Source: Bacteroidota bacterium (lineage in GTDB: Bacteria; Bacteroidota; Ignavibacteria; Palsa-1295). From it: a stretch of DNA of 60,417 bases. A program made the position numbers and the translations under genes. The notes below the pieces were generated by a model that did not search any database, was not told where the DNA came from, and worked only from the letters and a program-made list of their open reading frames with translations. The stretch spans positions 1 to 60,417 of the forward strand of contig JAJPIQ010000066.1 in the NCBI GenBank assembly GCA_021324685.1. The letters run 5' to 3'. Positions 7,620-54,614 of the stretch are shown one piece after another; the first letter of the stretch is position 1; the number at the start of each line of letters is the position of its first letter.

Positions 7620-7697
7620 TGGACCGGATGCTTCCGCTTTGCTTCTTTCGACACGCTTCCACTTCGAATAAAATCGCGCATAAATTAGAACACGCGA

Positions 7698-8129: not shown

Positions 8130-8225
8130 TCCGCGTTACGCAGTCCGCGTTACGCAGTCCGCGTTACGCAGTCCGCGTTACGCAGTCCGCATTACGCAGT
8201 CCGCATTACGCAGTCCGCATTACGC
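8128..8225. repeat. seven 14-bp tandem repeats between queF and queD
   Basis: The unit agtccgcgttacgc occurs four times (8128-8183), then agtccgcattacgc three times (8184-8225), with no spacer. The array starts at the queF stop codon and ends 12 bp before the queD start. Since 14 is not a multiple of three and no frame is favoured, it is not coding. It has the form of a VNTR within an operon. Confidence 0.97.
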
Positions 8226-8237
8226 TCCGAATTCACC

Positions 8238-12138: not shown

Positions 12139-12249
12139 AGAGTGCCGCAAAATGGTTTTAGACGAGCGAACTGTCGAATGTGATGGTTAGAGCTTTGAGC
12201 CTTCATGGACTAGATTGGACAAACTTCTTCTAAAAAAGGATTGAGACCG

Positions 12250-14710: not shown

Positions 14711-14725
14711 GATTTATATCCCTTT

Positions 14726-15349
14726 TTACAATACGATCCACTCCATTTCGAAGAGACTATAGTTACCACCGTTATCGATAATACGGAGACCAACATTGAA
14801 CCGGCCCGTGCGGAGTAACGTCACCTGAAGGTTCCTGCCAGGCGTTCCATACGTCGCCGTCGTTGGAAAAGAAAACACGGGAATTGTTCCCGTACCAGAA
14901 TTTTGGAAGTCGCCACTCGTTCCCGCATTATCACGAATGCTCAATTGAATGTCTGTCGAGGTTGCGCCTCCCGTAAAATCGAGGAAGACATTGTTGATGA
15001 ATGCCGTACCAGCTTTCAGGAACATGATCTTTTGTACTGCAGGCGGGACCTGGGCCGTCGGGACGGTCATCTGATGCAGCCCATTCCATGTATTCGCTTC
15101 CTCGATCGAACCAAAATCATATGGATTATTCACCTGAACGTTCGAAAGCGTTGAAGGGCTCGGCTGGCTCACGAGCATGGGCGGTGTAATCCACGCTCCG
15201 GCATGAAGATAAGTCGAACTTCTTGCGAAACTTGCCTGATGCATCGATCCGGTATTATCCTGTAACGAAACCATTGAAATAATGGCACGGGGGTCGTCGG
15301 GTGGTGTGACAACAAGATCGCTCCACGATTGAATCATTCTCCAGTTCAT
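14726..15349 (-). CDS. 207-residue beta-rich protein of unknown function
   Basis: First gene of the three-gene unit. There is no signal peptide. The sequence is rich in Thr, Val, Gly and Asn with alternating hydrophobic strands (GTAFINNVFLDFTGGATSTD, then LQVTLLRTGRFNVGLRIIDN), which suggests a beta-sandwich or jelly-roll such as those in tail-fibre or carbohydrate-binding proteins. This is a fold impression only. The upstream region holds a 12-base G tract on the coding strand, 49-60 bp before the ATG. No homologue is recognised. Confidence 0.7.
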   Translation of the reverse strand: MNWRMIQSWSDLVVTPPDDPRAIISMVSLQDNTGSMHQASFARSSTYLHAGAWITPPMLVSQPSPSTLSNVQVNNPYDFGSIEEANTWNGLHQMTVPTAQVPPAVQKIMFLKAGTAFINNVFLDFTGGATSTDIQLSIRDNAGTSGDFQNSGTGTIPVFSFPTTATYGTPGRNLQVTLLRTGRFNVGLRIIDNGGNYSLFEMEWIVL

Positions 15350-20756: not shown

Positions 20757-21238
20757 TTTCACTACCTTGCGGATCTCGATTAAGGGACCTTCCGACAATA
20801 TCAAAACTTTTATTCCCAACTCTCAATAATCGAACGCCGCGCGTGTTACAGTGAATCCCCAAAAGCCGAAGGTCAAACACCGCCTGGCACCATGTAAATG
20901 GAGCCGCAGTGGATAAAGTCAGACCTTTCAATGATATGCACCCAGACCGAAACGTCATTCTCCAACATCGCGAAGGTCCCCCTGCGGAAGCTACAAAATC
21001 GCTCGGACGCAAACACTCCCCGGCGCAAAACCGAGAAACCGGAACGGGAAGCCTATTCGACAAGTTTTGCACTCCCAACCATCGATACATCGAACATCGG
21101 ACTTTTGACGAACGTGCAGTTAGTATTATAAACCAGCGTTTTGAGGCCATTTGAAGCGGTTACAGGGGATGGCACCTCCCCTTCGGTGTAGCTACGAATG
21201 ACCTCGTTATCTTTCGTCCAGCATGGCGGGAGACTCTT
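20757..21238. other. gene-free region upstream of tRNA-Ser
   Basis: About 480 bp with only short open frames that lack recognisable protein character. It should hold the promoter of the T9SS gene at 20756 (minus) and of tRNA-Ser (plus). No clear TAnnTTTG box, repeat or structured RNA was seen. Confidence 0.5.
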
Positions 21239-21328
21239 GGAGAGGTGGCCGAGTGGCTGAAGGCAACGGTTTGCTAAACCGTCATAGTAGGTAAACTGCT
21301 ATCGAGGGTTCGAATCCCTCCCTCTCCG
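21239..21328 (+). tRNA. tRNA-Ser (anticodon GCU)
   Basis: A 90-nt class II tRNA. The acceptor stem pairs GGAGAGG with CCTCTCC. The D arm starts with TGGCCGAGTGGCTGAAGG, the anticodon loop is TTGCTAA with GCT at 21273-21275, a long variable arm (about 21282-21304) follows, and the T arm is GAGGGTTCGAATCCCTC. The discriminator base is G, as in tRNA-Ser. The 3' CCA is not encoded. It reads AGC/AGU codons. Confidence 0.97.
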
Positions 21329-21540
21329 CAAAAAACCGATGGTGCCGAGGCACGGTAGGCCCTGCTGCCCTGCGGTCGTTCGCTCTCGAACGGTAAAATT
21401 GTCTCGCCATTTATTGTTCTTTTTTTTCTTTCCCTTCTTTTCTGCATCGCTCATTTCCAGATCCCCGATTTAATTCCGGATTCCAGATTAAATAGAAGTT
21501 ATTCTCCTGGGACAATAGTATGTCTTAGATAATATTATGT

Positions 21541-21573
21541 CTTACGGCGAAGATAATATGTCTTCGTCATAAG
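21541..21573 (+). terminator. long stem-loop, possible terminator or structured RNA
   Basis: The arm cttacggcgaaga (21541-21553) pairs with tcttcgtcataag (21561-21573) over 13 positions with one C-A mismatch and one G-U pair; the loop is taatatg. It is followed by atatatttt. It lies 210 bp after the tRNA. Confidence 0.5.
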
Positions 21574-21625
21574 ATATATTTTCACATTGTTTACGTCCCG
21601 CAGAATTCGAATCGCCTGCGTCTTC

Positions 21626-21690
21626 TTCCCTTTCGGAAATAAAAAATTTTCCCTTTCGGAAATAAAAAATTCTCTCTCGGAAATAAAAAA
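21626..21690. repeat. three tandem copies of an A/T-rich unit
   Basis: Two copies of ttccctttcggaaataaaaa start at 21626 and 21649. A third, diverged copy (tctctctcggaaataaaaaa) spans 21671-21690. Each unit contains the semi-palindromic tttcggaaa or a variant of it. Confidence 0.75.
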
Positions 21691-21770
21691 ATGTCGGTCA
21701 GCGCAGTGTGGAAATGAAACGCGATTGCATCGAAAAATAAAATTTCAGGGCGCGCTGAAATTTTTATCTT

Positions 21771-23600
21771 ATGTTTGCAATGCTCATTGTACGTTTTAGC
21801 CCCCCCATCGGGCTTTGTTTTGTGAACGTCCTTCAAAATATTCGATTTTTTGCATTTTTGCTCGCCAGTTTTTTGGGACTGACCGCTCTGCACGCCCAAA
21901 GTTTCCGTAGCGCAGCCTTAGACAGCGATTGCTATTTCCCTGTTTTAGGAGATCCGGCAGAATTGGATACAATTTGTGGCTCGGTAGCAGGACAAGGGCT
22001 CGGACGGTTTGTCAAAAACCTTGGTCTTCTACCCGATGGCCGTTCGGGCCGGATGTTCCTGTCGAACCTGGATCCCGAATTGGGAGATCAGGGACCGTGG
22101 GATCGGGTCCCGACCGGCCCGGTCTTCGACCTTCACCATCTGGAGGCGTCCCTTCAGAAGTTCCCATCGCGCGGGACCGTTCCGAATTTCACACTCGCCC
22201 ATTTCCGCAATCGGGCGTACCTCGATGTATTCGTTCCCGAGACCTGGCGTATTTATTGGGCAGACACGCTGGGGAATTACGATACCACCCGATACACCCA
22301 ATTATCCTCGCATCTCAAAGGGGACCGGGAGTGGTACATGAAAATCTTTGGGTTCGGGAATTCTGAAGCGTATGTCGCCCCCATGACCGACGATACCCTG
22401 AGCGACGTCGTGGTCGCCCTTTATACGGATTGGACCGACGCATCGAAAGATACCGCCTTCCTCTTGCTGTTTCGCTCCACATCGTTGCATGGCCAGGACA
22501 CGGCCTTCGAGGACACTTCCTGCGTTTTGTTCCCAACTGTGAAGAACAATCCCTATCGAAATATCTTTCAGGGCGATTTTCGAGGGAGCGGCCGGGACGA
22601 CCTCGTCATTTATACGCAGGCGGTCCAGGGCTGGCCGGGAACGAACAATAATGATTTCTTTTATTTTCGGAACGACCCTCCTTTTTCGCTAACGCGCCTT
22701 GCGACGGCGATCGTATCGGATACGCTGATGGCAGCATGGCAGATCTTCGACAGCCTCTCCACCCCGTCCGTCCCCGACTTCCGCGTGGAATTTTCCATGC
22801 GAGCCTTGCCAAAGAGCATCGACGATCGTTCGCAGGACTGGATGCCCGTCTTTCCGACGATATCGCATCCGGACAACGAGATTCTTATTTTTCGGGGAGG
22901 ACCCGATTTCGGAACTCACCGGCTGACCTTGGACTCCGCCGCATTTAGAATTCCCCCGCCGGGAACCTATGACAATGCAGCGTTCGGGGGGCTCGTCTGG
23001 CCGGACGGACTCGGGCTGGCCGATGCCGGCGACATGACGGGAACCGGCAATCGCGTGCTGTATGTCCCGGCCGCCGATGCCGCCGGAGATTTTTGGCAGG
23101 AGATGTTTTACGTTACCGGCGCGGCCCTCGACGATAAGATCGACATGTATCAGGGCCCCGCTCCCGGTTCCGCATTCGGCGATACCCTTACGGCGAACGG
23201 CGACCGCCGTGAAGACTGGTTAAGCGGGCGCCCCGGCATGGTGGCCCCGAATGGACGTTCTTCGGGTTCCCTGTGGCTCTATGATGGTTCGTCGAAAATT
23301 CCAGTCCATACGAAGACCGATGGAATAACAAATCCGCAAGCGGAGCAGAGCGGCCTTGCGTTTTCGCCGAATCCGGCCATCCGTTGGAGCGTGGTAACGG
23401 TGGACTGGCCCGTCGCCGAGGAGGTGCAATTCGAGATACGCAATGTATTGGGCAACCTCGTCCAGGAAGGAACGTTGCGAATGCGTGGCGGACCCGAGCA
23501 GCAGCGAATCTATTTTAACGATCTTTCCCCAGGAGTTTATTATGTAACTATTCACGGTGCGCATACGGAACGGCGAGGTACGCTCGCAATTCTGCGCTGA
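21771..23600 (+). CDS. secreted VCBS/FG-GAP-like protein with T9SS sorting domain
   Basis: A 609-residue exported protein. From ATG 21771 a 26-residue extension precedes the signal core FFAFLLASFLGLTALHAQ; a GTG at 21822 gives a more typical signal and may be the real start. A run of seven C residues (21800-21806) lies between the two. The body has integrin/VCBS-like segments (GDFRGSGRDDLVIYTQ, GLGLADAGDMTGTGNRVLYV), suggesting a beta-propeller. The C-terminal domain contains AFSPNPAIRWSVVTV, FEIRNVLGNLVQ and LSPGVYYVTIHG. It is followed closely by the 2121-residue T9SS gene and may be co-transcribed with it. Confidence 0.82.
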   Translation: MFAMLIVRFSPPIGLCFVNVLQNIRFFAFLLASFLGLTALHAQSFRSAALDSDCYFPVLGDPAELDTICGSVAGQGLGRFVKNLGLLPDGRSGRMFLSNLDPELGDQGPWDRVPTGPVFDLHHLEASLQKFPSRGTVPNFTLAHFRNRAYLDVFVPETWRIYWADTLGNYDTTRYTQLSSHLKGDREWYMKIFGFGNSEAYVAPMTDDTLSDVVVALYTDWTDASKDTAFLLLFRSTSLHGQDTAFEDTSCVLFPTVKNNPYRNIFQGDFRGSGRDDLVIYTQAVQGWPGTNNNDFFYFRNDPPFSLTRLATAIVSDTLMAAWQIFDSLSTPSVPDFRVEFSMRALPKSIDDRSQDWMPVFPTISHPDNEILIFRGGPDFGTHRLTLDSAAFRIPPPGTYDNAAFGGLVWPDGLGLADAGDMTGTGNRVLYVPAADAAGDFWQEMFYVTGAALDDKIDMYQGPAPGSAFGDTLTANGDRREDWLSGRPGMVAPNGRSSGSLWLYDGSSKIPVHTKTDGITNPQAEQSGLAFSPNPAIRWSVVTVDWPVAEEVQFEIRNVLGNLVQEGTLRMRGGPEQQRIYFNDLSPGVYYVTIHGAHTERRGTLAILR

Positions 23601-43092: not shown

Positions 43093-46000
43093 TTACTCTT
43101 TCTCGATCACGAACTTACGGATGACCGTATAGCCGCCGACGTTCATGCGGACGAAGTAGACCCCCTCCGGAATATTGTCCGTCGCGACCTGCAGCGTATG
43201 ATCGCCCTTCTCGAGCGGTCCGTTCCAGATCTGCGCGACCGGCCGGCCGAGCATATCGAGCACTTCGGACGTCACCGGCGCATCGATGTTCGTCGTGAAG
43301 TGCAGCGTCGCGGCACTGCCGTCCTTATGCGCCGGATTGGGAACGACCTGAATGGCGGTGATCGGCCGCAGGTTGCCCTGCATCGCTCTCGCAATCAGGT
43401 TGTCCGGACAGAGGTTCGTATCGACGCAAATCGGCGCAGCGTTACTATCGCCGCCGGCCGCGAAGGCACTCATGACGCACGCCTCGAACGCCGAATCGTT
43501 GAAGTGCGGGTCCGTTACGTGCGCGGTATCCGAAACAATATTGGAGATCGCCGCGAGTTCCTTAAGGCGGATCAGCGGAGTTCCCGAAGGCGTCCCGTTC
43601 CCGGTATATTTCAACGTCACATGCAGCCCATCGCTCTCCGGCGTCAGCGACGTCAGGCTCCAACCCGAGCCGAAGTTATAGCCGCTCGGGTTCCATAACA
43701 GATCGCCATGATAGTGAATGACAAAAGTGATCTGATTGAGGCCCAGGCCGGCCGGGATCGAATCGTACAGCGTAACATCGAACTCCTTGAGATCGGAGTC
43801 GTTCGGCGAAAGGCAGGCCGTCGATGGGGTTGTTACGCCGATCCGGGCCGAATACTTCGACCCGGTGACCATCCCTTTGATCGTGATCACGGTATCGCCC
43901 GCCGTACCATTGATCGTGTAAGAGATCGTGAGCGTCGTGGAATTGTTCCCCGATGTATTCGGATCGAACACCACGGTATCGTTGAACGGCATCGGACCTC
44001 CCGAAGACGTCGTGAGGCTGAACTGCGGCGAGCCCGAAAGCGAAACGCCGGTGATCGTTCCGGCTCCGCCGCCCGCTTGGGCGGTAAACGCAACATTTCC
44101 ATTGGTGCAATTGGGTGTCGCAATGATGGAACCCGGCATCGCGAGCGTGAACGTGCCGATCGTCTGCACGCACGACTTCACCGGAATATCATACGGCACG
44201 ACGATCGTGTTGCCGCCGGTATCCGTGAGCGTGATCGTTCCCGTGAGATCGCCGGAGCCTTTCGTCGGCGCGAAGTGGACGCCGAAGCTCTGGTTCGCGC
44301 CTCCGGCGATCGTGACCGGAAGCGAAGGCGATGTCACGCTCACGTCCGGCCCGCTCACCGATGCGCTCTTGATCACGTACGTGTAGCACGTGCTCGTATT
44401 CGTCACGGTGAACTGCTCGTCCAACGTCGCCGTGTCGCAGAGCGTGTCGGAGGCAAGTTGCGTAACGGTATAGCTGAGCGATGGCGGATTGACATTCGCC
44501 GTGAGCGTAATGACCGCCGGTTGCTGATCGCCGGCCGGATCGGTAAAGATAATCGTGACCGCATCGGTCACCGCGCCGGTATCCGTGCTCGGCTGTTTGC
44601 AGATCGTGACCGGAATACTGTCTCCCGCCGCGATAGCCGTGCCGACGGCCGGGCTCACGACTTTGAACGCCGCGCCATTCGTCGGACCGACGATCTGCGC
44701 GACCGAGCCCTGCGTGTGGCATGCACTATTTTTCAGCATGATCGTCTGGCACGTCGAATCGCAGTAGCGGAGCGTCCCAAAATCGATCCCGGTCGAGTCC
44801 GGTGCAATCGCGATCGCAATCGTGCTCGTCCCTTTCAGCGTGATCTGCTGCGAGGTGGACTCGGCGGAACTCCAGACCAGGGTCAGAATGCCGGTGTAAA
44901 TGCTATCTCCCGAGCAGGTCGTATCGGGAATGAATCGAATCGTGATCGTTGCATTCGCGTCGATCCCAAGGGAATTCTTCGGACCCAGGCTCGTGCCGAT
45001 GACCTCGAAGTGCTTATTCGAAAGCGTTATCGATTTCAACGTGTCGAGAATACACTTGCCGGTGATCTTGATCGTCCGTGTCTGGGACGTATCGCAGCAA
45101 CTGACATTCCCGAAGTTAAGCGTTGCCGGGCTGTACGCCGGCTGGATCACGCTGGTGTTGCCGATATCGACGATCAACTGCACGGTCGTGTCGCCCGAGA
45201 ACGTCTGGTCGCAATCGCCGCCAGTCGTTCCGAACGTATAAGGGAACGTTAAATTTTCGGTGCAATTGTCGCACGTGACCGTGACCGGAATTTTGAGCAG
45301 CGCCTGCGGCGGGAACACGATCGGGAAATGAAGCGGCGGAATGGAGCCGGCGCTATCGATATGCATCGTGTTACAGGTCCCGGCACTGATCAATTGCGGC
45401 TGCTGTAAGGTCAACGTATCGCACGTCAGGTTCTGGAAAAACGCATATTGGACCGATGACTTTAAGGAACAGCAGTCCGGGCCCGTCACTTTGAACCCAA
45501 AGGCCCGCGGCGTCTGGTCCGTCGTCGTGGCTGCTTCCACTACAATGTCCGGCGTCGTCCCGGTGGTATACGGAGGAACGCAGGTTTCCCAATTCAAAGA
45601 AACTCTTGCCTGGTGAAACACTCCCTGCGTTTTTCGAATCCCTGCGATATAGGTAACCGGAAAGTTCCAACAATCTCCCGGTTGAAGGATAATGGGATTT
45701 TGAGGACTTATTTCATTACATCCGATCATCTCTAAGAAGCACTGGTCTTGTGAAGTCTCATCGGTGCTGCAAGAGACAATTTGAATGCAGGTGCAGCTCG
45801 TGTTGCAGATTTGGAACGACGTATCCACTTCTCCGCACGCCGCCGAAGTAATCACGATCCGTCCCGGCACCAGCGGTTGAATATGCGGCGAAACGCCATT
45901 GCCCACAACGAAAATGGACGTATCGACGGGCTGACCGTTATCGACCAGGTGGAAATGAATAAAGCCGGAATCGGTATTGATACTCGTCGGCTGGAATTGG

Positions 46001-47322
46001 ACATCGACCGAAACCGGATTTCCTTCGGGGCTCGTCCCCGAGGTGCAGAGCGTCAGTGGCAGCGGGTTCGAAATTACGCCCTTGAACGTATCGACGATCG
46101 TTGTAAACCGTGACGTGCTATCGCCCGTAAGTACGGGGTTCGAGCCGCAATTACAAGCAAAAATGTGGACGGTCGTATCCGAAATCTTGGCACAGCCGGC
46201 ATTCGTGAACCGGACCGTGTCCGGCCAGATATGAAAATCGGTTGTGGCAGGCCGCGTCAGATAGTATAACTGGTTCCCGCTAAAAGTCCAGACGATGGAA
46301 GGCGAAGCATAGATACGCGTGTCTTTCGTCGGCGTCGGCGTGATGGCCCCACCCTGCAGGGGCTGCCATGTTTTTCCGTCGTCCGTCGAAACGAACATTC
46401 CGAGGTGCGATTGCGAAGAAGGCGCGAAGAGCACGCAGCCATCGCCCACCATATCTTCCGTAAGCGAATCGCCACAGGTGAAGGCATTCGGGATCGGGCC
46501 GAAGGCATAGCCATTCATATCGGACCGGAATACCGCTTCGGGACAACTATTGGCGCAGTCGTTCGGGTTGACCGAAGTAAAAAATGTGGTGGTGGTTGAA
46601 ATTCCAAGCGGCTGCCAGCTCTCATAAAACATTCGACTCTGGTGCCACGTCTGCCCTTCGTCCGTCGTCTGAAGCCAGTAATTGAAAGGAGACCCCAGGC
46701 AGTTGGAACCTTCCGTCGCGAGCACACCGGATTTATCGTCGATAAAAGCGAAGCCGGTGTAATACTTGTGCGTGTCCAGAACCTGCCAGGCCTGTCCGGC
46801 ATTCGAAGAGACCATAAATCCCTTATCGTCGCTGGCGACAAAGAGGAGGTTCGAGAGGTGGTTATAATAAATTCCATCGCCGCTGTCGGGCGTGCCGATA
46901 TTATCGTCGAAGACCCACGTTTTTCCGGAATCGGCGGTTATGATAATTCCCGAATCGAGCGGGTTCGTATTGCTGTCGATGATCGCAAAGCCATTGAGTG
47001 CGTCCTTGAACGTGATATCGTTGACCCAACCGGTCTGGAAGGGCGGGAGCGGTCCCGGATTGGGACTCGTGATCGTACAGCGCGTCCAGGTCGTACCGCC
47101 ATCGTTCGTGCGCCAGATCCCCGTATCGTCGCCCACGAAACCGACCTTCGGTGCGCCGACGGCATCCAAAAACTTTACGATATGGATCGTGCCATGAAAT
47201 CCTTGCATGACACGCTGCCACGTGGCCGGGCCGCCCTGCGCGAACGCAGAACCGAAGCACGCCAGAATTAAAAAAGAAGTGAAGATGGAAGGACCGAAGA
47301 CGTTGCGTAGTAGTTTTTTCAT
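43093..47322 (-). CDS. 1409-residue secreted T9SS protein with Asp-box and Ig-like domains
   Basis: The signal peptide MKKLLRNVFGPSIFTSFLIL is cut near AFAQ. An Asp-box region (about 25-370) has TNDGGTTW, TADSGKTW, TTDEGQTW and STDDGKTW. A cysteine-rich region of repeated Ig-like, choice-of-anchor-D/ASH-type domains follows (about 370-1200), e.g. ATLNFGNVSCCDTSQTRTI and GIDFGTLRYCDSTCQTIML. A cohesin-like segment lies at about 1150-1310 (KEFDVTLYDSIPAGLGLNQI). The sorting domain is VVPNPAHKDGSAATL, EVLDMLGRPVAQ, IPEGVYFVRMN. Similarity of the repeat units suggests internal duplication. The function is probably surface display or binding. Confidence 0.87.
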   Translation of the reverse strand: MKKLLRNVFGPSIFTSFLILACFGSAFAQGGPATWQRVMQGFHGTIHIVKFLDAVGAPKVGFVGDDTGIWRTNDGGTTWTRCTITSPNPGPLPPFQTGWVNDITFKDALNGFAIIDSNTNPLDSGIIITADSGKTWVFDDNIGTPDSGDGIYYNHLSNLLFVASDDKGFMVSSNAGQAWQVLDTHKYYTGFAFIDDKSGVLATEGSNCLGSPFNYWLQTTDEGQTWHQSRMFYESWQPLGISTTTTFFTSVNPNDCANSCPEAVFRSDMNGYAFGPIPNAFTCGDSLTEDMVGDGCVLFAPSSQSHLGMFVSTDDGKTWQPLQGGAITPTPTKDTRIYASPSIVWTFSGNQLYYLTRPATTDFHIWPDTVRFTNAGCAKISDTTVHIFACNCGSNPVLTGDSTSRFTTIVDTFKGVISNPLPLTLCTSGTSPEGNPVSVDVQFQPTSINTDSGFIHFHLVDNGQPVDTSIFVVGNGVSPHIQPLVPGRIVITSAACGEVDTSFQICNTSCTCIQIVSCSTDETSQDQCFLEMIGCNEISPQNPIILQPGDCWNFPVTYIAGIRKTQGVFHQARVSLNWETCVPPYTTGTTPDIVVEAATTTDQTPRAFGFKVTGPDCCSLKSSVQYAFFQNLTCDTLTLQQPQLISAGTCNTMHIDSAGSIPPLHFPIVFPPQALLKIPVTVTCDNCTENLTFPYTFGTTGGDCDQTFSGDTTVQLIVDIGNTSVIQPAYSPATLNFGNVSCCDTSQTRTIKITGKCILDTLKSITLSNKHFEVIGTSLGPKNSLGIDANATITIRFIPDTTCSGDSIYTGILTLVWSSAESTSQQITLKGTSTIAIAIAPDSTGIDFGTLRYCDSTCQTIMLKNSACHTQGSVAQIVGPTNGAAFKVVSPAVGTAIAAGDSIPVTICKQPSTDTGAVTDAVTIIFTDPAGDQQPAVITLTANVNPPSLSYTVTQLASDTLCDTATLDEQFTVTNTSTCYTYVIKSASVSGPDVSVTSPSLPVTIAGGANQSFGVHFAPTKGSGDLTGTITLTDTGGNTIVVPYDIPVKSCVQTIGTFTLAMPGSIIATPNCTNGNVAFTAQAGGGAGTITGVSLSGSPQFSLTTSSGGPMPFNDTVVFDPNTSGNNSTTLTISYTINGTAGDTVITIKGMVTGSKYSARIGVTTPSTACLSPNDSDLKEFDVTLYDSIPAGLGLNQITFVIHYHGDLLWNPSGYNFGSGWSLTSLTPESDGLHVTLKYTGNGTPSGTPLIRLKELAAISNIVSDTAHVTDPHFNDSAFEACVMSAFAAGGDSNAAPICVDTNLCPDNLIARAMQGNLRPITAIQVVPNPAHKDGSAATLHFTTNIDAPVTSEVLDMLGRPVAQIWNGPLEKGDHTLQVATDNIPEGVYFVRMNVGGYTVIRKFVIEKE

Positions 47323-47528
47323 AGAGGGACCAGCTTAGCGAGGCTGGGTTGAAAAAAGTGAAAACAATTGCCCTTTTGAAACCGGCTTCGCACCATAGGA
47401 GTGCACTCTTGTCCGAGCACCGCACCCCTGTGCAACACACCGCAGATGTTCATGGCATCCGCGATGCGCAAATGGCGAAAGGAGTCGAAAAAGCAACACG
47501 AAAACCGATGAGATAAATTTCACCGGTG

Positions 47529-47536
47529 CAAATATA
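47529..47536 (-). promoter_or_regulatory. possible Bacteroidota -7 promoter element
   Basis: On the minus strand this reads TATATTTG, an exact TAnnTTTG match. It is 207 bp upstream of the 1409-residue gene start, with a T-rich stretch (gtttttcg) about 15 bp further upstream that could be a weak -33 box. Confidence 0.35.
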
Positions 47537-47614
47537 CGGAACAGGGAGCGAAAAACCGGCATTTTCGCATTCGAGAGGCTTCAATCGCTGAGCCGGATTC
47601 TTTAGAAAGAAAAA

Positions 47615-48322
47615 ATGGCAAAATGTAATCGCCCGGTTTTTAGCCTGCTCTTTGTAGTTTGTTTATTTTCCTATGCACAAAATGCCGCGGGCCAAAGGTT
47701 GAGGTCGGCGAAAATGATCACGGTGGACTCCAATCGCACTCTGTTTCTTCACCGGGCGGCCATCATCGCTGATGTCAGGATCTTGGATACCAGTCAATTC
47801 CTTACAAAGGATGCGTCATTCCCGAAGCTTGTGGTTGTAACCGCCATCATACTCGATGGGATGAAGGGAAAATATGTTCCCAGATGTCCTTCGGTTCGCA
47901 AAGCATACGCCAAAGAGTACCCGGATGATTATTACCGTACTTCTGCAGACACCATTTTAGCTCTGCCGGGAACAACGTTTCAGTTCGAGTATCGCCCTCA
48001 CTGGTTTCGCGGAATTGTAACCGATGTCATGATGGGTCCTCAACTAACGTATTCGAGTGGCGATTGGATTAAAAAAGATTCCGAGTACGTCGTGTTTTTG
48101 GATTTTGTCGGAGTTACATCCGATGGGACGAACCTATACTACGCCTTACAGCCAGAATGGGGCTCCTTCGGTTCGGTGGACGGTTTGTATCCAGTCCGTG
48201 ACGGTCTTGTGTACGATCCGAACGACGATTTCGGTCTCGGAGCTTTTAAAGGCCTTGCACTTCCCGAGTGGAAATCAAGGCTACGAGCAAGGATACAAAA
48301 GAAAATCGTAGTTAATAAATAG
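47615..48322 (+). CDS. secreted protein, one-domain member of a three-gene paralogue family
   Basis: A 235-residue exported protein (signal core FSLLFVVCLFSYAQNAAGQ). It shares with the genes at 48346 and 49879 the segments (D)IIAD-(V/I)-(K/R)-(V/I)-(S/L)DT, an FEY-P-W-R block, a W--K-(D/G)-EY(I/V)VFL block, and the tail DPNDDFGLG--(LP)-WK(S/A)RLRARI. It lacks the N-terminal helical domain of about 100 residues that the two longer paralogues have. Cysteine content is lower too. No T9SS domain is present, so it is probably released to the periplasm. It is 23 bp before the next paralogue. The family is not recognised; an NTR/OB-fold comparison is discussed under findings. Confidence 0.78.
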   Translation: MAKCNRPVFSLLFVVCLFSYAQNAAGQRLRSAKMITVDSNRTLFLHRAAIIADVRILDTSQFLTKDASFPKLVVVTAIILDGMKGKYVPRCPSVRKAYAKEYPDDYYRTSADTILALPGTTFQFEYRPHWFRGIVTDVMMGPQLTYSSGDWIKKDSEYVVFLDFVGVTSDGTNLYYALQPEWGSFGSVDGLYPVRDGLVYDPNDDFGLGAFKGLALPEWKSRLRARIQKKIVVNK

Positions 48323-48345
48323 TCAAAATCTTTAAAAATGGAAGC

Positions 48346-49347
48346 ATGAAAAAATCAAGCATAATTAAATACATGGCATTTGTTGTAGTGCTCGTTTCCT
48401 TTGTGGGTAATTCACGCGGCCAATCGACTTATAGTGGCGCGCTGCAATATTATATCGATCAACTAAAGTCAGTACCAACAGCCTCTAGTGGCGAACCGAG
48501 CGACATACAATTGGCTTATTTGCGGCTCGATAAATTATTGCGAATGAAGGAACGGTCCCAAACAGAATCATTCCTTGATTCTCTATCGTATGGCGACACA
48601 TTGAAATTTTTTGCAAAAATGCTCTATCGCATTGTTGACGATAATCCCATAATGTATATGTTATGGAGTGCTTCGGCGAGTAGGTTTGCGTACAAAACAC
48701 AGCCGGACTTGGTCCGCGGTGTCCTTCAAACCAACGTAACAGAGAATTTCCGTGATTGGGCACAAACAGGTCAGCTCTTACAGTGCGATATTATTGCCGA
48801 TGTAAAGATTTCCGACACGGTAATTAACGAAAATCTTGTTCCGGAGATGGCCGTCGTGTTTTCGACGATCATGGACCCAATAAAAGGCAAAAAAATCCCT
48901 TCCTGTCCGCCCATCGTTAAATCGGAACCTGGAAGGCGGTTTAAATCAATAACGTACTATGCAGACGTGGACACTGCGGCACAGGGACAATGTCTTGCTT
49001 TCGAATATTGTCCCGAATGGTCCCGCACTGCTGTCCAGATCGGCGACGATGTACGGCCGTTCCAAAACCCTTTAACGGACGGTTCCGGATGGTGGATTAA
49101 GCCGGACAGCGAATATATCGTCTTCTTGTACCTACGACGAGTTGATGATGACAGTTCGACACAATATTTTACCGTCTATCCGCTTTCCGGATCTTTTGGA
49201 ACCCAGGGTGCAATGTACCGCGTACAAAATGGACACGTTGTCGATCCGAACGATGATTTCAATCTTGGTGGTCGAGACCTACCGGTCGAGGAATGGAAAG
49301 CTCGGCTGCGAGCAAGGATTAAGGCTCTTTTGGATTTTAAAAAATAA
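48346..49347 (+). CDS. secreted protein, two-domain paralogue
   Basis: A 333-residue exported protein with a signal peptide (MAFVVVLVSFVGNSRGQ). Domain 1 (about residues 28-110) is helical, opening with TYSGALQYYIDQLKS and including FFAKMLYRIVDDNP. Domain 2 (about 145-330) has LLQCDIIADVKISDT, DPIKGKKIPSCPP, CLAFEYCPEWSRT, WWIKPDSEYIVFLYL and DPNDDFNLGGRDLPVEEWKA. Cysteines in domain 2 may form disulfides. It is closest to the protein encoded at 49879. Function unknown; adjacency to a secreted metalloprotease suggests a link. Confidence 0.78.
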   Translation: MKKSSIIKYMAFVVVLVSFVGNSRGQSTYSGALQYYIDQLKSVPTASSGEPSDIQLAYLRLDKLLRMKERSQTESFLDSLSYGDTLKFFAKMLYRIVDDNPIMYMLWSASASRFAYKTQPDLVRGVLQTNVTENFRDWAQTGQLLQCDIIADVKISDTVINENLVPEMAVVFSTIMDPIKGKKIPSCPPIVKSEPGRRFKSITYYADVDTAAQGQCLAFEYCPEWSRTAVQIGDDVRPFQNPLTDGSGWWIKPDSEYIVFLYLRRVDDDSSTQYFTVYPLSGSFGTQGAMYRVQNGHVVDPNDDFNLGGRDLPVEEWKARLRARIKALLDFKK

Positions 49348-49467
49348 CTGTTTTTCAAAAAGTAATATAAAGAGAATAAAGAAACGTTACATCTAGGATT
49401 GAGAATGTTTACAAACGAAAGGCAGACCCAGCAATTTTAGCTGTCCTGTCACTTATAATAGATAGAA

Positions 49468-49719
49468 CTATTTTATTGCACGAGAACCGGATTGCATGGT
49501 TTTTTCGATTGCACGATCGAAAAAAAGAAGACCAGGATGAATGCCTAATGCCTTCGCAATTTGAGATAAACTAGAAACGGTCAAATTACGAGAACCGCGT
49601 TCTACATCACCAATGTAACCACGCTGAAGGCCAGAGATTTGCGCTAAATCACCCTGAGAATAGCCGCGCATTTCACGCAACGTCTTTACGTTTTTACCGA
49701 TTGTTTTAAGCAACTCCAT
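49468..49719 (-). CDS. XRE/Cro-type helix-turn-helix regulator
   Basis: An 83-residue DNA-binding protein starting at ATG 49719; an ATG 15 codons earlier is open, but would add unrelated residues. The HTH spans about residues 5-63: GKNVKTLREMRGYSQGDLAQ, then ISGLQRGYIGDVERGSRNLT and LSQIAKALGIHPGLLF. This is a typical XRE repressor of the restriction-controller (C-protein-like) size class. It is the only minus-strand gene inside the secreted-protein cluster and diverges from 49879. A perfect inverted repeat (49758-49777) lies between the two starts, a likely operator. Confidence 0.9.
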   Translation of the reverse strand: MELLKTIGKNVKTLREMRGYSQGDLAQISGLQRGYIGDVERGSRNLTVSSLSQIAKALGIHPGLLFFDRAIEKTMQSGSRAIK

Positions 49720-49757
49720 TCGGTAATAATGCACCCACACGATAAAGGTACATTTTA

Positions 49758-49777
49758 CGGTCACCTTAAAGTGACCG
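49758..49777. promoter_or_regulatory. inverted repeat, candidate operator of the XRE regulator
   Basis: A perfect inverted repeat: cggtcac, spacer cttaaa, gtgaccg. It is 39 bp upstream of the regulator start (minus strand) and about 100 bp upstream of the paralogue gene at 49879 (plus strand). The symmetry and location suit binding by a dimeric XRE protein. Confidence 0.55.
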
Positions 49778-49806
49778 CTTTTTGTGCTCGCCTCGAAAAA
49801 CGGTAG

Positions 49807-49814
49807 TATATTTA
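49807..49814 (+). promoter_or_regulatory. possible -7 promoter element for the 49879 gene
   Basis: TATATTTA is close to TAnnTTTG and lies 65 bp upstream of ATG 49879. A TTTTTG stretch (about 49779-49784) lies upstream at roughly -33 spacing. The inverted repeat at 49758-49777 would overlap or abut this promoter. Confidence 0.35.
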
Positions 49815-49878
49815 TACTAATTGTCTCGTCCGGCGAGTCCTTAATGGCCCATGTCGGTTACTTAAAAGAAAGAAAAAA

Positions 49879-50928
49879 ATGATAAGAGCATACCCTATTC
49901 GGCATCTCGGTATTTTGATGCCCCTTTTTGCTTTCACAAGCACCGCGATCGCACAGCGATCACCTTTGACGTATTCCGGCGCCATGGAATACAGCCTTCC
50001 ATTGCTAAAAGCGATGCCACCAATAAGCGATAGCCAACCGTCTGATATAGCAAACGCTTATTTGTGGGCAGATCAGCTCATGCGGACTACGTCTTCCGCC
50101 GATATTGAAACGTGGTTGAAAAACCTCATTAATATAGATACGATGAAGTTTCTCGCTAAAATGGAATATAAGGTCCGGGATGATAATCCATTGACACTTT
50201 ACCAATGGGAAAGCAGTGGTTGGCCAGAATGGGGCCACGCTGATTATCCTTGGCACTATAAAGCCGATCCAGGGGTAGAGGTCGATAGACTTACAAACAC
50301 ATGCGGCTATCTTATGGCCGATACCGGCCGAAACGGATATCTTATTGCTTGCGATATCATCGCGGACATCCGAGTCAGCGATACATCTATTACGAATGTT
50401 TCCAATAATCCAATCGCTCCGCATGAAGTTTTTATCAAATCGACCGTGCTTGATCCTATTAAAGGAAAACAAATTCCCGAATGCCTCGGCTATGGCATGA
50501 GAGCACGTCAAGGAAAAATAACGGCGCAAACCACGTATGCCACACCTTGGATTACACACGCTGTTCCTGACGATACGGGTTCCTGCCTCGAATTCGAATA
50601 TTCGCCCGAATGGTCGAGAACAAAAGCTGGAGATCAAGTTCCCTACGCGAATCCGTTTAAGGATTCGTCAGGATGGTGGGTAAAGCCAAGCGGCGAATAT
50701 ATTGTCTTTCTTTATTTCGGGGGAATTGGCAGCGATACATCTAACGCATATTTTAGTGTTTGGCCCTATTGGGGGGTGTTCGGTACGCAGGGAGGTATTT
50801 ATCGGGTTCTGGATGGAATTGTACAGGACCCGAACGATGATTTTGGTCTTGGAGCAGCTGCAGGTCTCCCTGTGAATCAGTGGAAGGCCCGCCTGCGAGC
50901 AAGAATATATAATATCCTCAATCCATAA
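49879..50928 (+). CDS. secreted protein, two-domain paralogue
   Basis: A 349-residue exported protein (signal MIRAYPIRHLGILMPLFAFT, cut near AIAQ). Domain 1 (about 32-115) opens with LTYSGAMEYSLPLLKAMP and ends FLAKMEYKVRDDNP. Domain 2 (about 155-349) has LIACDIIADIRVSDT, DPIKGKQIPECLG, CLEFEYSPEWSRT, WWVKPSGEYIVFLYF and DPNDDFGLGAAAGLPVNQWK. It is clearly homologous to the gene at 48346 over the whole length. The metalloprotease gene begins 14 bp after its stop, so the two are co-transcribed. Function unknown. Confidence 0.8.
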   Translation: MIRAYPIRHLGILMPLFAFTSTAIAQRSPLTYSGAMEYSLPLLKAMPPISDSQPSDIANAYLWADQLMRTTSSADIETWLKNLINIDTMKFLAKMEYKVRDDNPLTLYQWESSGWPEWGHADYPWHYKADPGVEVDRLTNTCGYLMADTGRNGYLIACDIIADIRVSDTSITNVSNNPIAPHEVFIKSTVLDPIKGKQIPECLGYGMRARQGKITAQTTYATPWITHAVPDDTGSCLEFEYSPEWSRTKAGDQVPYANPFKDSSGWWVKPSGEYIVFLYFGGIGSDTSNAYFSVWPYWGVFGTQGGIYRVLDGIVQDPNDDFGLGAAAGLPVNQWKARLRARIYNILNP

Positions 50929-50942
50929 AAGAGTAGATAACA

Positions 50943-52469
50943 ATGAAAAGAAAATTTTTCCTTCTTGCGGTTATCTTCTTTTTTGGAACCGCAATTCAGG
51001 CGCAAGTTCATTGCCCAATGCCCTGCGAATCCGAAAGCTTCCCGTACCTTTTTTGTACATTAACGGGAACTCAAATAATTCAGTGTTCAACAAATCCCAA
51101 CAGCATGCCTGGCCTTGTTCCGGCGAAGTCAAAAATACCGGGATGCGTAACTGTGGAACCGCTTGACCCGAGCGATTGGTATCAACCAACAGAGGGAGTC
51201 CCGGAGGCCCCTACTCCTCCAGACAAAGAAACAATCTTTGAATTTTATAGCAACACTTCTGTTTGGCCTCCGCCCTGGAGTCGTCCTTATAGCGGGGATG
51301 AAGGCGATTGGGGAAACGACGAAAGTGCGTACGAGGCAGGTTTAGCGCAGTGGAATTTAGACAGTGTTAATTTCTTTTCGGGATTAGACGATGAGTTAAT
51401 CGATACCACGGGTTTCGATCCTACTGACTCCATTGTCGCCGAAAGGTATTATACAGCCGCATATTATTCGCTGTTCAACGAATATAATACCGAGGAGTCG
51501 CAATATCTGTCTGATTCCACCGCTCATGCGGAAGGAACAGATGTAAACTACCATCAGGTCTGGGATCATGCCGAAGCACAAGACGATGCGCAAAAAGGAT
51601 TGAATGCTTGGCTAGCAATATGTAATTTACAAGGCGACCCGAATTGTTGCATCGTCATAAAACCAGACGACTATAGTTCCAATTGGCAGGGTCAATACGA
51701 TCCAACTCAAGGTGCAACGTCGTTCCCGCTTGCAAAAGAGTTTGGCAACCCGCTATGTCCGGACGATAATCAATGCCCCGACACGAACTATCGGTACATT
51801 ATTTTTAATGCAACAAATAAATTTTTATATCAAAATAATCAAAATCGGCGAAATCCCAATCCAGCGTACATTTTACATGAAGTTCCTACGGAAGATTTTT
51901 TTACTGGATTAGATGCGCCGTCAGATGTTTATCCGAGCGACAATGATTTCAGCTTTCGCGATGTAGCTGCACATGAAATTGGACATTGGTTAGGCATGCA
52001 GCATCCTGACACTTCAGTCAACGGTGCTAAGTGTGTTAATAACTATAACAATTGCAAAGATAGTATTCCCGGATATAGGATGCTTATGGGTGACTACCTA
52101 CCGCATGCCACGTCCGCGCAAGGGTTGTCGTATGACGATAAATGCATGTTCTCAAAGTTGTATTGCCCGAGCAGTTTACCATCAGGCGTTAAAGAATCAG
52201 ATCAACCAGAGCCGCCACCGCCCGAAGTGTATCCTAATCCTACGAGCGGTGGGATGACGCTTACGTTTACGGTCTCGGAACGAAATATCGTTCGAGTATC
52301 AATCTATGACATGCTCGGCAATCCGATTCGAGAAATTGTCAACGATATTTTTGAACCGAGCTCCCAATCTATTTCGCTTGGTACGGAATCCCTGCCAACC
52401 GGTAATTACGTCTGCCGCGTGCGAGTAGGAGATCGGGTGAGTTATTTGAACGTCGAGGTTAGGAAATAA
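50943..52469 (+). CDS. secreted metzincin-type zinc metalloprotease with T9SS sorting domain
   Basis: A 508-residue exported protein (signal MKRKFFLLAVIFFFGTAIQA). Residues H344-E-I-G-H348-W-L-G-M-Q-H354 form the full HExxHxxGxxH zinc site of metzincins, with the catalytic Glu at 345; the MLMGDYL segment downstream is a candidate Met-turn. Many cysteines and a long N-terminal region (about 30-300) may be a prodomain or substrate-binding part. The C-terminal part has VYPNPTSGGMTLTF, SIYDMLGNPIR and LPTGNYVCRVR, a T9SS type A domain, so it is a T9SS-exported protease. The substrate is unknown. It directly follows a paralogue gene (14 bp). Confidence 0.9.
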   Translation: MKRKFFLLAVIFFFGTAIQAQVHCPMPCESESFPYLFCTLTGTQIIQCSTNPNSMPGLVPAKSKIPGCVTVEPLDPSDWYQPTEGVPEAPTPPDKETIFEFYSNTSVWPPPWSRPYSGDEGDWGNDESAYEAGLAQWNLDSVNFFSGLDDELIDTTGFDPTDSIVAERYYTAAYYSLFNEYNTEESQYLSDSTAHAEGTDVNYHQVWDHAEAQDDAQKGLNAWLAICNLQGDPNCCIVIKPDDYSSNWQGQYDPTQGATSFPLAKEFGNPLCPDDNQCPDTNYRYIIFNATNKFLYQNNQNRRNPNPAYILHEVPTEDFFTGLDAPSDVYPSDNDFSFRDVAAHEIGHWLGMQHPDTSVNGAKCVNNYNNCKDSIPGYRMLMGDYLPHATSAQGLSYDDKCMFSKLYCPSSLPSGVKESDQPEPPPPEVYPNPTSGGMTLTFTVSERNIVRVSIYDMLGNPIREIVNDIFEPSSQSISLGTESLPTGNYVCRVRVGDRVSYLNVEVRK

Positions 52470-52550
52470 TTGCGATGAGGCGTAACGCCGCTATTTAAAC
52501 GTTCCTCCTTCGATCTTTCATAAGCGAGGCCGCCAAAATAGTGGTCTCTC

Positions 52551-54614
52551 TTATGAAAGCACGCGTTGCTCGGCCGTTTTGCCGATGAAGGCGCGGACCT
52601 GTTCGCGGAGGCCTTCGCGGTCGAGTCCGCACTCGGCAAGCAGGCCGGCGGGCGAACCGTGCTCGATAAACCGGTCCGGAAGACCCAAATGCAGGACATG
52701 CTTTAGCTTGTCCTCGGACTTCCGGGTCGCAAGGTATTCGGAAACGGCGCTGCCAAAGCCTCCGGCCACGACATTCTCTTCGACCGTGATCATATGTTTG
52801 AAGCGGACGGCGAGCGCATCGATCAGGTTCGTATCGAGCGGCTTCACATATCGCGCGTTCGCGACGGCGATCGATATTCCTTCCCGCTGCAGGTCTTCCG
52901 CGGCTTTCATCGCTTCATAGAGCACCGGCCCGACGCCGAGGACCACGGCATCTTCGCCGTCGCGCAGCATTTCGCCCTGTTGGATGGGGAGCGCGGTAAA
53001 ACCTTTGTCGGCCAGCGGCACGCCGATCCCCGCGCCGCGCGGATAGCGGATCGCCACAGGACCACGGGGCAAAGAAGAAAGAGGAGAGAGGAACGATGAG
53101 TCCTTTATTGCCTCCCTTTTCGTCTTTAAGCTTCCATCTGTTAATTCTTCATCTTTTGGAGCCGGGGCTCTAGCTTCATCTCTTGCACAGGTCGCGGTAA
53201 AGAGCATATCCCGCAGTTCCTGCTCGTCCTTCGGGACCATGATCGTGAGGTTCGGGATGAGCCGAAGGTACGAAAGGTCGAAGGCGCCATGGTGCGTCGG
53301 GCCGTCGGCGCCGACCAAGCCCGCGCGGTCCATCGCGAAGACGACGGGGAGCTTTTGCAGGGCGACATCGTGGATGATCTGGTCGAAAGCGCGCTGGAGG
53401 AACGTCGAGTAGATCGCGCAGACGGGAATCATTCCTTCCGTCGCCATTCCGGCGGCGAACGTGACGGCATGCTGTTCCGCAATGCCGACATCGAAGAACT
53501 TCTCGGGAATTTCTTTTTGCAGGATATGGAGCCCGGTGCCGTCCGGCATGGCGGCCGTGATCCCGACGACCTTCGGGTTCGTCCGGCAGAGTTCCACCAT
53601 CGCCTGCCCGAAGACCTTCGTGTACTCCGGTGGCTGCGGCGCCAGGACCGGTTTCGAGACCGCGATCCCCGTCACTTTATCGAACGCGCCGCTCGCCGCA
53701 TGGTATTTCTGCGCGTGCGATTCGGCGGGCGCGTAACCGTGCCCTTTTTCGGTGATCACGTGCAGCAGGAGCGGACCCGACTGCTGCTTTAAAAACGCGA
53801 ACATCTCCGCGAGCTTCGTCACATTGTGCCCGCTCACGGGGCCGAAATACTTGAAGCCGAGCGCTTCGAACATCATGCCCGGCGTCATGGCCGCTTTCAT
53901 CGCATCGACGAGTTTCGCTCCCGCCGAACGGAGCAGCTCGTGCCCGCCCAGTTTTTCCCAGACCTGGTCTTTAAATTTCCGGATCGCCGGGTTCGTGATA
54001 AAGGAATTAAAATGCTCGTGCAGCGCCCAGACGTTCGGCGCGATCGACATATTGTTGTCGTTGAGGACGACGAGGAGGTCCTTCTTGAGCATGCCGCAAT
54101 TGTTCAGCGCCTCGTAGGCGATGCCGCCAGTCATGGAACCATCCCCGATCACGGCGACGACGTGGTAGTCCGCCCCCGGTTCCCCGCTCGCCTTCGCATA
54201 ATCGCGCGCGGTCGCGATGCCGAGCGCGGCGCTGATGGAGGTCGAGGCATGGCCCGCGCCGAAAACATCGTACTCGCTTTCGTTCCTGCTGAGGAACGGG
54301 GCGAGGCCGTCCTTCTGGCGAATGGTGTTGAGCCGCGATTTCCTTCCCGTCAGGATCTTGTGCGGATAGGCCTGGTGCCCCACGTCCCAGATCACTTTGT
54401 CCCTCGGCGTATCGAAGGCGTAATGGAGCGCGACGGTGAGTTCGACGACGCCCAGGCCCGCGCCGAAATGTCCGCCCGTCTGGGCGATGGTATCGATCAG
54501 GAATTCGCGGACGTCCGCCGAAATGGCCTCCAGGTCGCTCGGGGCGTAGGTACGGAGGTCTTCCGGGGTCTCGATATTCTTAAGGTACGGATAGGCGTCG
54601 AAATCTGGCTGCAT
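52551..54614 (-). CDS. dxs: 1-deoxy-D-xylulose-5-phosphate synthase with an in-frame insertion
   Basis: DXS condenses pyruvate and glyceraldehyde 3-phosphate in a TPP-dependent reaction, the first step of the MEP isoprenoid pathway. Diagnostic motifs: TIAQTGGHFGAGLGVVELTV, WDVGHQAYPHKILTGR, VIGDGSMTGGIAYEALNNCG (GDG...NN TPP motif), VLNDNNMSIAPNV, FDVGIAEQHAVTFAAGMA (catalytic Glu) and AIRYPRGAGIG. The length of 687 residues exceeds the usual 620-645. The excess is a segment of about 45 residues, roughly 472-518, between the LFTATC and GPVAIRYPRG strands. It is rich in Lys, Glu, Ser and Leu and ends in an LSPLSSL tail. The gene borders the phage module. Confidence 0.95.
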   Translation of the reverse strand: MQPDFDAYPYLKNIETPEDLRTYAPSDLEAISADVREFLIDTIAQTGGHFGAGLGVVELTVALHYAFDTPRDKVIWDVGHQAYPHKILTGRKSRLNTIRQKDGLAPFLSRNESEYDVFGAGHASTSISAALGIATARDYAKASGEPGADYHVVAVIGDGSMTGGIAYEALNNCGMLKKDLLVVLNDNNMSIAPNVWALHEHFNSFITNPAIRKFKDQVWEKLGGHELLRSAGAKLVDAMKAAMTPGMMFEALGFKYFGPVSGHNVTKLAEMFAFLKQQSGPLLLHVITEKGHGYAPAESHAQKYHAASGAFDKVTGIAVSKPVLAPQPPEYTKVFGQAMVELCRTNPKVVGITAAMPDGTGLHILQKEIPEKFFDVGIAEQHAVTFAAGMATEGMIPVCAIYSTFLQRAFDQIIHDVALQKLPVVFAMDRAGLVGADGPTHHGAFDLSYLRLIPNLTIMVPKDEQELRDMLFTATCARDEARAPAPKDEELTDGSLKTKREAIKDSSFLSPLSSLPRGPVAIRYPRGAGIGVPLADKGFTALPIQQGEMLRDGEDAVVLGVGPVLYEAMKAAEDLQREGISIAVANARYVKPLDTNLIDALAVRFKHMITVEENVVAGGFGSAVSEYLATRKSEDKLKHVLHLGLPDRFIEHGSPAGLLAECGLDREGLREQVRAFIGKTAEQRVLS

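What the first reader, a model, noticed from the sequence alone, without database searches (positions are those of the whole stretch)
47615..52469. Cluster of three paralogous secreted proteins, an XRE regulator and a T9SS metzincin protease
Seen: genes at 47615, 48346 and 49879 share the blocks (C)DIIAD..SDT, FEY.PEW.R, W.(K)P..EY(I/V)VFL and DPNDDF.LG..LP...WK.RLRARI; the last is followed at 14 bp by a protease with HExxHxxGxxH and a T9SS tail. A small XRE gene divides the cluster. Base use is AT-richer than the flanking genes. Inference: a regulated, horizontally acquired secreted-protease system in which the paralogues are inhibitors, chaperones, substrates or adaptors. I do not know a described system of this form.
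Basis: partly seen in the sequence, partly recalled or inferred. Interest (0 to 1): 0.72.

Follow-up and report, generated by a model that had tools for sequence, protein, structure and literature searches.

The report
Secreted protease with paired TIMP-fold partner
A bacterium carries an inserted gene block in which an exported, MMP-like protein-cutting enzyme sits behind a gene for a partner protein whose predicted fold is that of the animal inhibitors of such enzymes (TIMPs), and this enzyme-plus-partner pair recurs throughout a whole class of bacteria, which suggests a general bacterial way of keeping a dangerous secreted protease in check.

Summary
Three paralogues (47615, 48346, 49879), an XRE gene (49468-49764, minus) and a metzincin with a T9SS tail (50943-52469) form a block of 45.5% GC in 56.5% GC surroundings. 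The flanking genes are direct neighbours in four of six genus-mates, so the block is an insertion.

The family has no Pfam, NCBIfam or PHROGs name. AlphaFold2 predicts a helical N-domain plus a C-terminal netrin/TIMP-like (NTR) OB domain (agrin NtA Z 9.2; TIMP-1 6.3). The protease is matrixin-like (MMP-7 Z 10.5), apparently without a large prodomain.

The pair recurs: 43 of 76 relatives across the class have a metzincin immediately next door (22 of the 27 closest have it downstream). In the window's genome both metzincin-motif genes sit in such pairs. The two gene trees share 20 of 34 splits (random maximum 4). Orphan partners are scattered over the tree.

Best reading (about 0.6): the NTR protein is a periplasmic cognate inhibitor protecting the cell from a T9SS-exported protease, under XRE control. 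No inhibition was shown. The principle is known (Listeria Mtz-Tim; Tannerella potempin-KLIKK; AprI), so this is a new variant: an undescribed, two-domain, non-lipoprotein NTR family co-inherited with its proteases.

The parts
47615..48322 (+). P1: short paralogue, signal peptide plus NTR-like domain only, no helical N-domain
   Evidence: 42% identity to P3 over its C-terminal part, E 6e-40; alignment shows N-domain missing
48346..49347 (+). P2: full-length paralogue (signal peptide, helical N-domain, NTR-like domain), no protease of its own directly behind it
   Evidence: 46% identity to P3, E 5e-78
49468..49764 (-). XRE/HTH_3 regulator, likely true start near 49719 (MELLKTIGKNV)
   Evidence: Pfam HTH_3 2.7e-13; homologues divergent to the paralogue in L053, L054, L055, L059, L062, L063, L064, L073
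49758..49777 (.). candidate XRE operator, palindrome CGGTCACCTTAAAGTGACCG between XRE and P3
   Evidence: near-perfect inverted repeat; a differently worded palindrome (CGCCATTTAAGGATGGCG) lies at the like place in L053; function inferred
49807..49814 (+). candidate Bacteroidota-type -7 element TATATTTA before P3
   Evidence: TATATTTG-like words recur upstream of the paralogue in L053, L063, L064; consensus TAnnTTTG from general knowledge; inferred
49879..50928 (+). P3: cognate NTR-family partner of the protease
   Evidence: AF2 model pLDDT 83, pTM 0.85; 38 of 76 relatives have a metzincin immediately downstream
50326..50925 (+). NTR/TIMP-like OB domain of P3 (residues 150-349)
   Evidence: VIA-align: agrin NtA Z 9.2, PCOLCE1 NTR 7.3, TIMP-1 6.3; top 30 rows are NTR/C345C/TIMP domains
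50943..52469 (+). MZ: matrixin-like metzincin with signal peptide and T9SS C-terminal tail
   Evidence: Pfam M10 and Por_Secre_tail; MMP-7 Z 10.5 over residues 33-409
51972..52004 (+). zinc-binding motif HEIGHWLGMQH of MZ
52227..52433 (+). T9SS C-terminal sorting domain of MZ (residues 429-497)
   Evidence: Pfam PF18962 5e-9
47323..52550 (.). inserted block between the left T9SS-tailed protein (43093-47322) and dxs (52551-54614)
   Evidence: the two flanking genes are adjacent, without the block, in G001, G002, G003 and G005; GC 0.455 versus 0.565

Best explanation
The block is a protease-plus-guard module. MZ is a matrixin-like metzincin carried out of the cell by the T9SS. P3 is its dedicated partner: Sec-exported, without a T9SS tail or lipobox, therefore expected in the periplasm, where it binds the enzyme through an NTR/TIMP-like domain and keeps it inactive (possibly also helps it fold) until it has crossed the outer membrane. 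The enzyme seems to have no large prodomain, so the guard acts in trans. A divergent XRE regulator controls the pair. P2 and P1 are extra guards: P2 full-length, P1 a bare NTR domain, possibly left from modules that lost their protease. Shown: anatomy, recurrence, co-inheritance, insertion. Predicted: folds. Inferred: inhibition, periplasmic location, XRE control.
For: NTR/TIMP-like fold of the partner and MMP-like fold of the enzyme: the fold pairing that in animals means inhibitor and target. Adjacency: 38 of 76 members have a metzincin immediately downstream and 5 more immediately upstream; 22 of 27 downstream for the closest; of 50 metzincin ORFs in 899 kb of fetched loci 45 touch a family member, 4 of the other 5 are pieces of split neighbours and the fifth lies 352 bp away. 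Gene order flips (protease first) in several loci of one family, yet adjacency stays. In the window's genome both metzincin-motif genes are in such pairs, in G006 both, in G037 all three. Tree congruence: 20 of 34 splits shared, random maximum 4; swapping partners within six genomes never reaches 20 in 4995 trials. Orphan partners without protease are scattered through the tree, as for orphan immunity genes; orphan proteases were not seen in the loci. Partners lack lipoboxes and, with two exceptions, T9SS tails, while 17 of 21 proteases carry the T9SS tail. Described analogues where the adjacent gene is an inhibitor: potempins directly precede KLIKK proteases (PMC7296668); AprI, and the PotA-like immunity protein of a karilysin-like effector (PMC8235301 and PMC13340143).
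Against: No inhibition, binding or location was tested. The NTR assignment rests on a predicted structure; Foldseek alone is not significant (TIMP-2 at rank 7, E 0.53), and no TIMP/NTR profile matches by sequence. The zinc-chelating N-terminal Cys of TIMPs is absent. NTR domains also act as enhancers (PCOLCE) or binding modules without protease inhibition. In the nearest described bacterial pair, Listeria Tim is cut by Mtz rather than shown to inhibit it. 33 of 76 members have no adjacent metzincin. Linked genes share trees anyway, so congruence shows co-inheritance, not contact. Two partners (L161, L069) carry their own T9SS tail and would act outside.
Confidence: 0.6

Rival explanations
1. 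Substrate or pro-effector: the protease cuts its partner and frees the NTR domain, which then acts outside or on the cell envelope, as proposed for Listeria Tim. P1, a bare NTR domain, would be a ready-made free form.
For: Mtz removes ~50 N-terminal residues of Tim and both are needed for the cell-wall phenotype (PMC8235301). P3 and P2 have a separable N-domain before the NTR domain and P1 lacks it. Two relatives have T9SS tails and would be exported.
Against: The N-domain is as well conserved as the NTR domain (mean column entropy 2.54 versus 2.44; Pro47, Pro48, Asp65, Asp87, Tyr97 nearly invariant), unlike a throw-away leader. Most partners have no export signal across the outer membrane, so they would meet the secreted enzyme only inside the cell.
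Confidence: 0.15
2. Folding chaperone or secretion escort (steric chaperone) for the metzincin rather than an inhibitor.
For: Gene lies directly upstream on the same strand with a short gap, product expected to stay in the periplasm, protease has little or no prodomain of its own.
Against: NTR folds have no chaperone role that I know of (general knowledge); orphan copies without protease persist, which suits immunity or inhibition better. Chaperone and inhibitor roles are not exclusive.
Confidence: 0.12
3. Interbacterial effector-immunity pair: the metzincin attacks competitors, the NTR protein is the immunity protein and orphan copies (P1, P2) give cross-protection.
For: Recurrent orphans, tandem partners, insertion of modules as units and divergent paralogous pairs in one genome; a karilysin-like T6SS effector has a PotA-like immunity protein (PMC13340143).
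Against: No delivery apparatus beyond the T9SS tail, no killing assay; overlaps with the best explanation, differing only in the target of the protease.
Confidence: 0.1
4. Unrelated secreted genes that merely travel together on an AT-rich genomic island.
For: 33 of 76 relatives lack a protease neighbour; AT-rich block.
Against: Near-exclusive adjacency in 899 kb, preserved over gene-order flips and across many families, and congruent trees.
Confidence: 0.03

Closest known systems
Listeria mtz-tim locus (metzincin and TIMP-like protein with XRE cI/cro switch; PMC8235301)
   Same: XRE control region, secreted metzincin with HExxHxxGxxH/D and a neighbouring exported protein with a TIMP-like predicted fold; pair conserved as a unit and mobile
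   Different: There metzincin first, Tim second, two XRE genes, Tim a lipoprotein in Listeria, phage-linked, Gram-positive; here partner first, one divergent XRE gene, no phage genes seen, T9SS tail on the protease, extra helical N-domain; sequence similarity between the two was not tested
Tannerella forsythia potempin-KLIKK operons (PMC7296668; structures in Ksiazek 2023, recalled, paper not held)
   Same: Inhibitor gene directly precedes a T9SS-exported protease, several of them metzincins; specific cognate pairs; some potempins have an OB-type barrel (recalled)
   Different: Potempins are small lipoproteins; here 235-349 residue soluble proteins, two of three with a helical N-domain, and an NTR-like fold
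Serralysin inhibitors AprI/Inh (MEROPS I38)
   Same: Periplasmic inhibitor encoded beside a secreted metzincin
   Different: [quoted passage not shown] serralysins leave by type I secretion (general knowledge), not T9SS
Animal TIMP - MMP
   Same: NTR-fold partner and matrixin-fold protease
   Different: No N-terminal zinc-chelating Cys, no TIMP sequence match, large N-domain in front, linked gene pair in bacteria

Membership tests
TIMP (PF00965, MEROPS I35) | sequence match to the TIMP/NTR profile | tested here: not met
   no TIMP or NTR hit for any of 34 members at E 0.1; TIMP search finds nothing in G000
TIMP (PF00965, MEROPS I35) | mature N-terminal Cys (C-x-C) that chelates the catalytic zinc | tested here: not met
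   NTR domain starts near residue 150 behind a helical domain; P1, which lacks that domain, has no Cys after its signal peptide
TIMP (PF00965, MEROPS I35) | inhibits metzincins | not testable with these tools
   needs a protein assay
NTR-like (netrin) fold superfamily | five-stranded OB barrel with terminal helix, matching NTR structures | tested here: met
   AF2 model; VIA-align top 30 rows are NTR, C345C or TIMP domains, Z 9.2 to 5.4, followed by SSB-type OB folds at 5.4 and lower; prediction only, Foldseek alone not significant
Metzincin, matrixin-like (M10) | HExxHxxGxxH/D and downstream Met-turn | tested here: met
   motif in MZ and in 35 of 37 paired proteases, third ligand H 28, D 6, E 1; a Met follows by a simple pattern in 27 of 35; in MZ the stretch is RMLMGD
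Metzincin, matrixin-like (M10) | MMP catalytic-domain fold | tested here: met
   MMP-7 Z 10.5, 153 residues, 3.4 A; Pfam M10 in 17 of 21; whole-model pLDDT only 67.6
T9SS cargo | C-terminal sorting domain | tested here: met
   Por_Secre_tail in MZ and 17 of 21 proteases
Potempin (KLIKK inhibitor) | gene directly upstream of a T9SS protease | tested here: met
   P3-MZ gap 14 bp; 38 of 76 relatives
Potempin (KLIKK inhibitor) | small lipoprotein | tested here: not met
   P1-P3 are 235-349 aa without lipobox; the three pattern hits among 78 relatives lie inside the signal peptide
Listeria Mtz-Tim | sequence homology to Mtz and Tim | not tested
   Listeria sequences were not fetched; comparison is of published organisation
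Serralysin inhibitor Inh/AprI (I38) | AprI-type inhibitor fold and sequence | tested here: inconclusive
   no Pfam match; not listed among fold matches, which does not exclude it

The most novel reading that the evidence does not exclude
Bacteria of this class hold an old, widely diversified MMP-TIMP-like recognition system: NTR-fold inhibitors with an added helical domain that have co-diversified with T9SS-exported matrixin-like proteases, possibly sharing an origin with the animal TIMP-MMP pairing instead of resembling it by convergence.
Probability: 0.12. Interest if true: 0.78.

Novelty: new variant of a known kind. Interest (0 to 1): 0.52.

Why it matters
If the partner inhibits the protease, a TIMP-type fold guards an MMP-type enzyme in T9SS bacteria, outside both animals and the few described bacterial cases. 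It would give a name and a testable function to a family that Pfam, NCBIfam and PHROGs do not know, provide tens of natural enzyme-inhibitor pairs (several per genome) for studying how specificity co-evolves, and show how bacteria with prodomain-poor metzincins avoid damaging themselves before T9SS export.

Tried and rejected
Sequence searches of the partner family against Pfam, NCBIfam, PHROGs, PADLOC and the PDB gave no credible match. Profile-profile comparison with a bona fide small bacterial TIMP from the same class (L177) gave nothing. Phage origin: no phage hit for the protease, none for P1-P3 or MZ in PHROGs, no significant viral fold match. No direct repeat marks the ends of the insertion. 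The first genome scan for the metzincin motif used a mistyped pattern and was repeated; one search should be ignored. Distance-matrix correlation of the pairs was modest (Spearman 0.30, random maximum 0.20, but 19% of swaps within genomes are as high), probably because distances are saturated, so shared splits were used. The idea that orphans form one separate clade was rejected (24 label changes, 26.3 by chance). TIMP-type zinc chelation by an N-terminal Cys was considered and rejected. A cysteine switch by the short N-terminal segment of MZ (C24, C28; C28 is nearly invariant) is not excluded. No sequence of Listeria or Tannerella was fetched. No complex prediction could be run.
Full report
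Observation. P2 and P3 share 45% identity; P1 shares 38% with P2 over the part they have in common and lacks the N-terminal domain. A search of the window's own genome with P3 returns P2 (E 5e-78), P1 (E 6e-40) and a fourth copy on another contig (G000:C22, E 3e-84). The protease has a matrixin match and a T9SS sorting tail, the small gene is HTH_3.

The module occurs twice in the genome. On contig C22 (locus L053) the same kinds of gene stand in the same order: XRE on the opposite strand, paralogue, and 12 bp later a metzincin of the same kind with HEIGHYLGLHH. In the whole 3.47 Mb assembly the HExxHxxGxx[HD] pattern occurs only twice, and both places are these two proteases.

The pair recurs across the class. 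A profile of the family finds it in 62 of 391 sampled genomes of the class, in many families; in a phylum-wide sample all hits fall in the same class. Record titles of near relatives read Ignavibacteriae or Bacteroidetes metagenome-assembled genomes. Of 76 members with enough sequence behind them, 38 have a metzincin immediately downstream and 5 more immediately upstream; of the 27 closest members 22 have it downstream. In 899 kb of fetched loci nearly every metzincin ORF touches a family member; of the five that do not, four are pieces of split neighbours and one lies 352 bp away. These loci were chosen around family members, so the figure shows concentration at the partner, not a genome-wide census. 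The motif counts give that for 12 genomes, and in some of them (G034, G046, G093) other motif-bearing stretches lie elsewhere. In one family of the class the order is reversed, metzincin first, with three such pairs in tandem in G037 (L066). XRE neighbours were found only within the window's genus, in 8 fetched loci plus the window, so the regulator is an accessory of the module there, not a constant part.

Co-inheritance. Trees of 37 partners and their 37 neighbouring catalytic domains share 20 of 34 splits; random relabelling gives at most 4. Swapping partners among pairs within the same genome for six genomes never reaches 20 in 4995 trials. Genome G003 has four analysed pairs that fall in four different clades, the same four in both trees. 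This shows that pairs stay together and are not reshuffled. It does not by itself prove contact, since linked genes share history.

Orphans. Members without a protease are spread over the partner tree (24 label changes, 26.3 by chance). The likely reading is repeated loss of the protease with the partner kept, or copies kept as extra guards. P2 and P1 in the window fit this. In L069 the protease beside the partner has lost its motif (YELGQ for HExxH).

Fold. The AlphaFold2 model of P3 from 34 sequences is good (pLDDT 83, pTM 0.85): helices 55-157, then a beta domain and a C-terminal helix. VIA-align puts agrin NtA first (Z 9.2, 2.7 A over 117 residues) and the top 30 rows are all NTR, complement C345C-containing or TIMP chains, including TIMP-1 in its complex with MMP-1 (2j0t, Z 6.3), with generic OB folds below (Z about 5). 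Foldseek alone is not significant, and no sequence profile links the family to NTR or TIMP. The NTR assignment is therefore a structural prediction. The protease model is weaker (pLDDT 67.6) but matches MMP-7 at Z 10.5 from residue 33 on. The signal peptide appears to end near residue 21 (read from the sequence), so a prodomain of more than about ten residues is not visible. Residues 72-205 are an insertion within the domain, mostly helical and low in confidence. A short latency segment with Cys24/Cys28 cannot be excluded.

Location. The partners carry ordinary signal peptides without a lipobox and, apart from L161 and the second copy in L069, no T9SS tail was found; 17 of 21 proteases have the tail. 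The partner should stay in the periplasm while the enzyme leaves (inference).

Insertion. In four of six genus-mates (G001, G002, G003, G005) the left-hand T9SS-tailed protein and dxs are direct neighbours without the block. With the low GC and third-position GC this supports acquisition as a unit. No integrase, transposase or terminal repeat was seen in the block. Lower GC of these genes relative to their surroundings is general for the family (61 of 70 loci, mean difference 4.4 points), so low GC alone is weak evidence of transfer.

Regulation. Between XRE and P3 lie the palindrome CGGTCACCTTAAAGTGACCG (49758-49777) and a TATATTTA word at 49807; L053 has a different palindrome at the like place before TATATTTG. 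These are candidate operator and promoter, untested.

Comparison with known systems. Listeria carries a metzincin and a TIMP-like lipoprotein under an XRE cI/cro-like switch (PMC8235301). There the metzincin cuts the TIMP-like protein and the fragment is released; relatives in other Firmicutes have an unanchored partner. In Tannerella forsythia KLIKK protease genes are directly preceded by genes for small lipoproteins, potempins, with inhibitory activity against the co-expressed protease (PMC7296668). A karilysin-like T6SS effector has a potempin-like immunity protein (PMC13340143). The AprA-AprI pair is named by the Listeria authors as a bacterial metzincin-inhibitor precedent. The present family works, most likely, like these, but is a member of none by the tests made here: it fails the sequence and N-terminal Cys tests of TIMPs and the small-lipoprotein test of potempins, and homology to Tim was not tested.

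Verdict. It is a new variant of a known kind: a class-wide family of NTR-fold partners, mostly two-domain, linked to T9SS-exported matrixin-like proteases, most likely as their inhibitors (0.6), not shown biochemically.

Noticed in passing
L177:1465-1908 (-), genome G093: A 147-aa secreted protein matches Pfam TIMP above its cut-off (5e-6) and has C-T-C near the start of its mature part, like the zinc-chelating N-terminus of animal TIMPs; no metzincin was seen beside it in the 3.3 kb held.
   Followed up: partly
L066:4732-12025, genome G037: Three tandem metzincin-partner pairs with reversed gene order (protease first); these are the only three metzincin-motif genes of that genome.
   Followed up: partly
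L069:4321-7775, genome G163: Partner - degenerate metzincin (YELGQ in place of HExxH) - second partner that carries its own T9SS tail.
   Followed up: partly
genome G046, several places: Eight copies of an identical 33-base stretch CACGAAACCGAACACCGTCTGGGCTGCCGACAT scattered over the chromosome, probably part of a repeated element.
   Followed up: no
window 12001-15000 and 21001-22000: Further stretches of clearly lower GC (0.42-0.49) than the rest of the window.
   Followed up: no
L161:5773-7032 and 7139-8440: A T9SS-tailed partner without protease lies directly behind a SurA/PpiC-type periplasmic chaperone gene.
   Followed up: no
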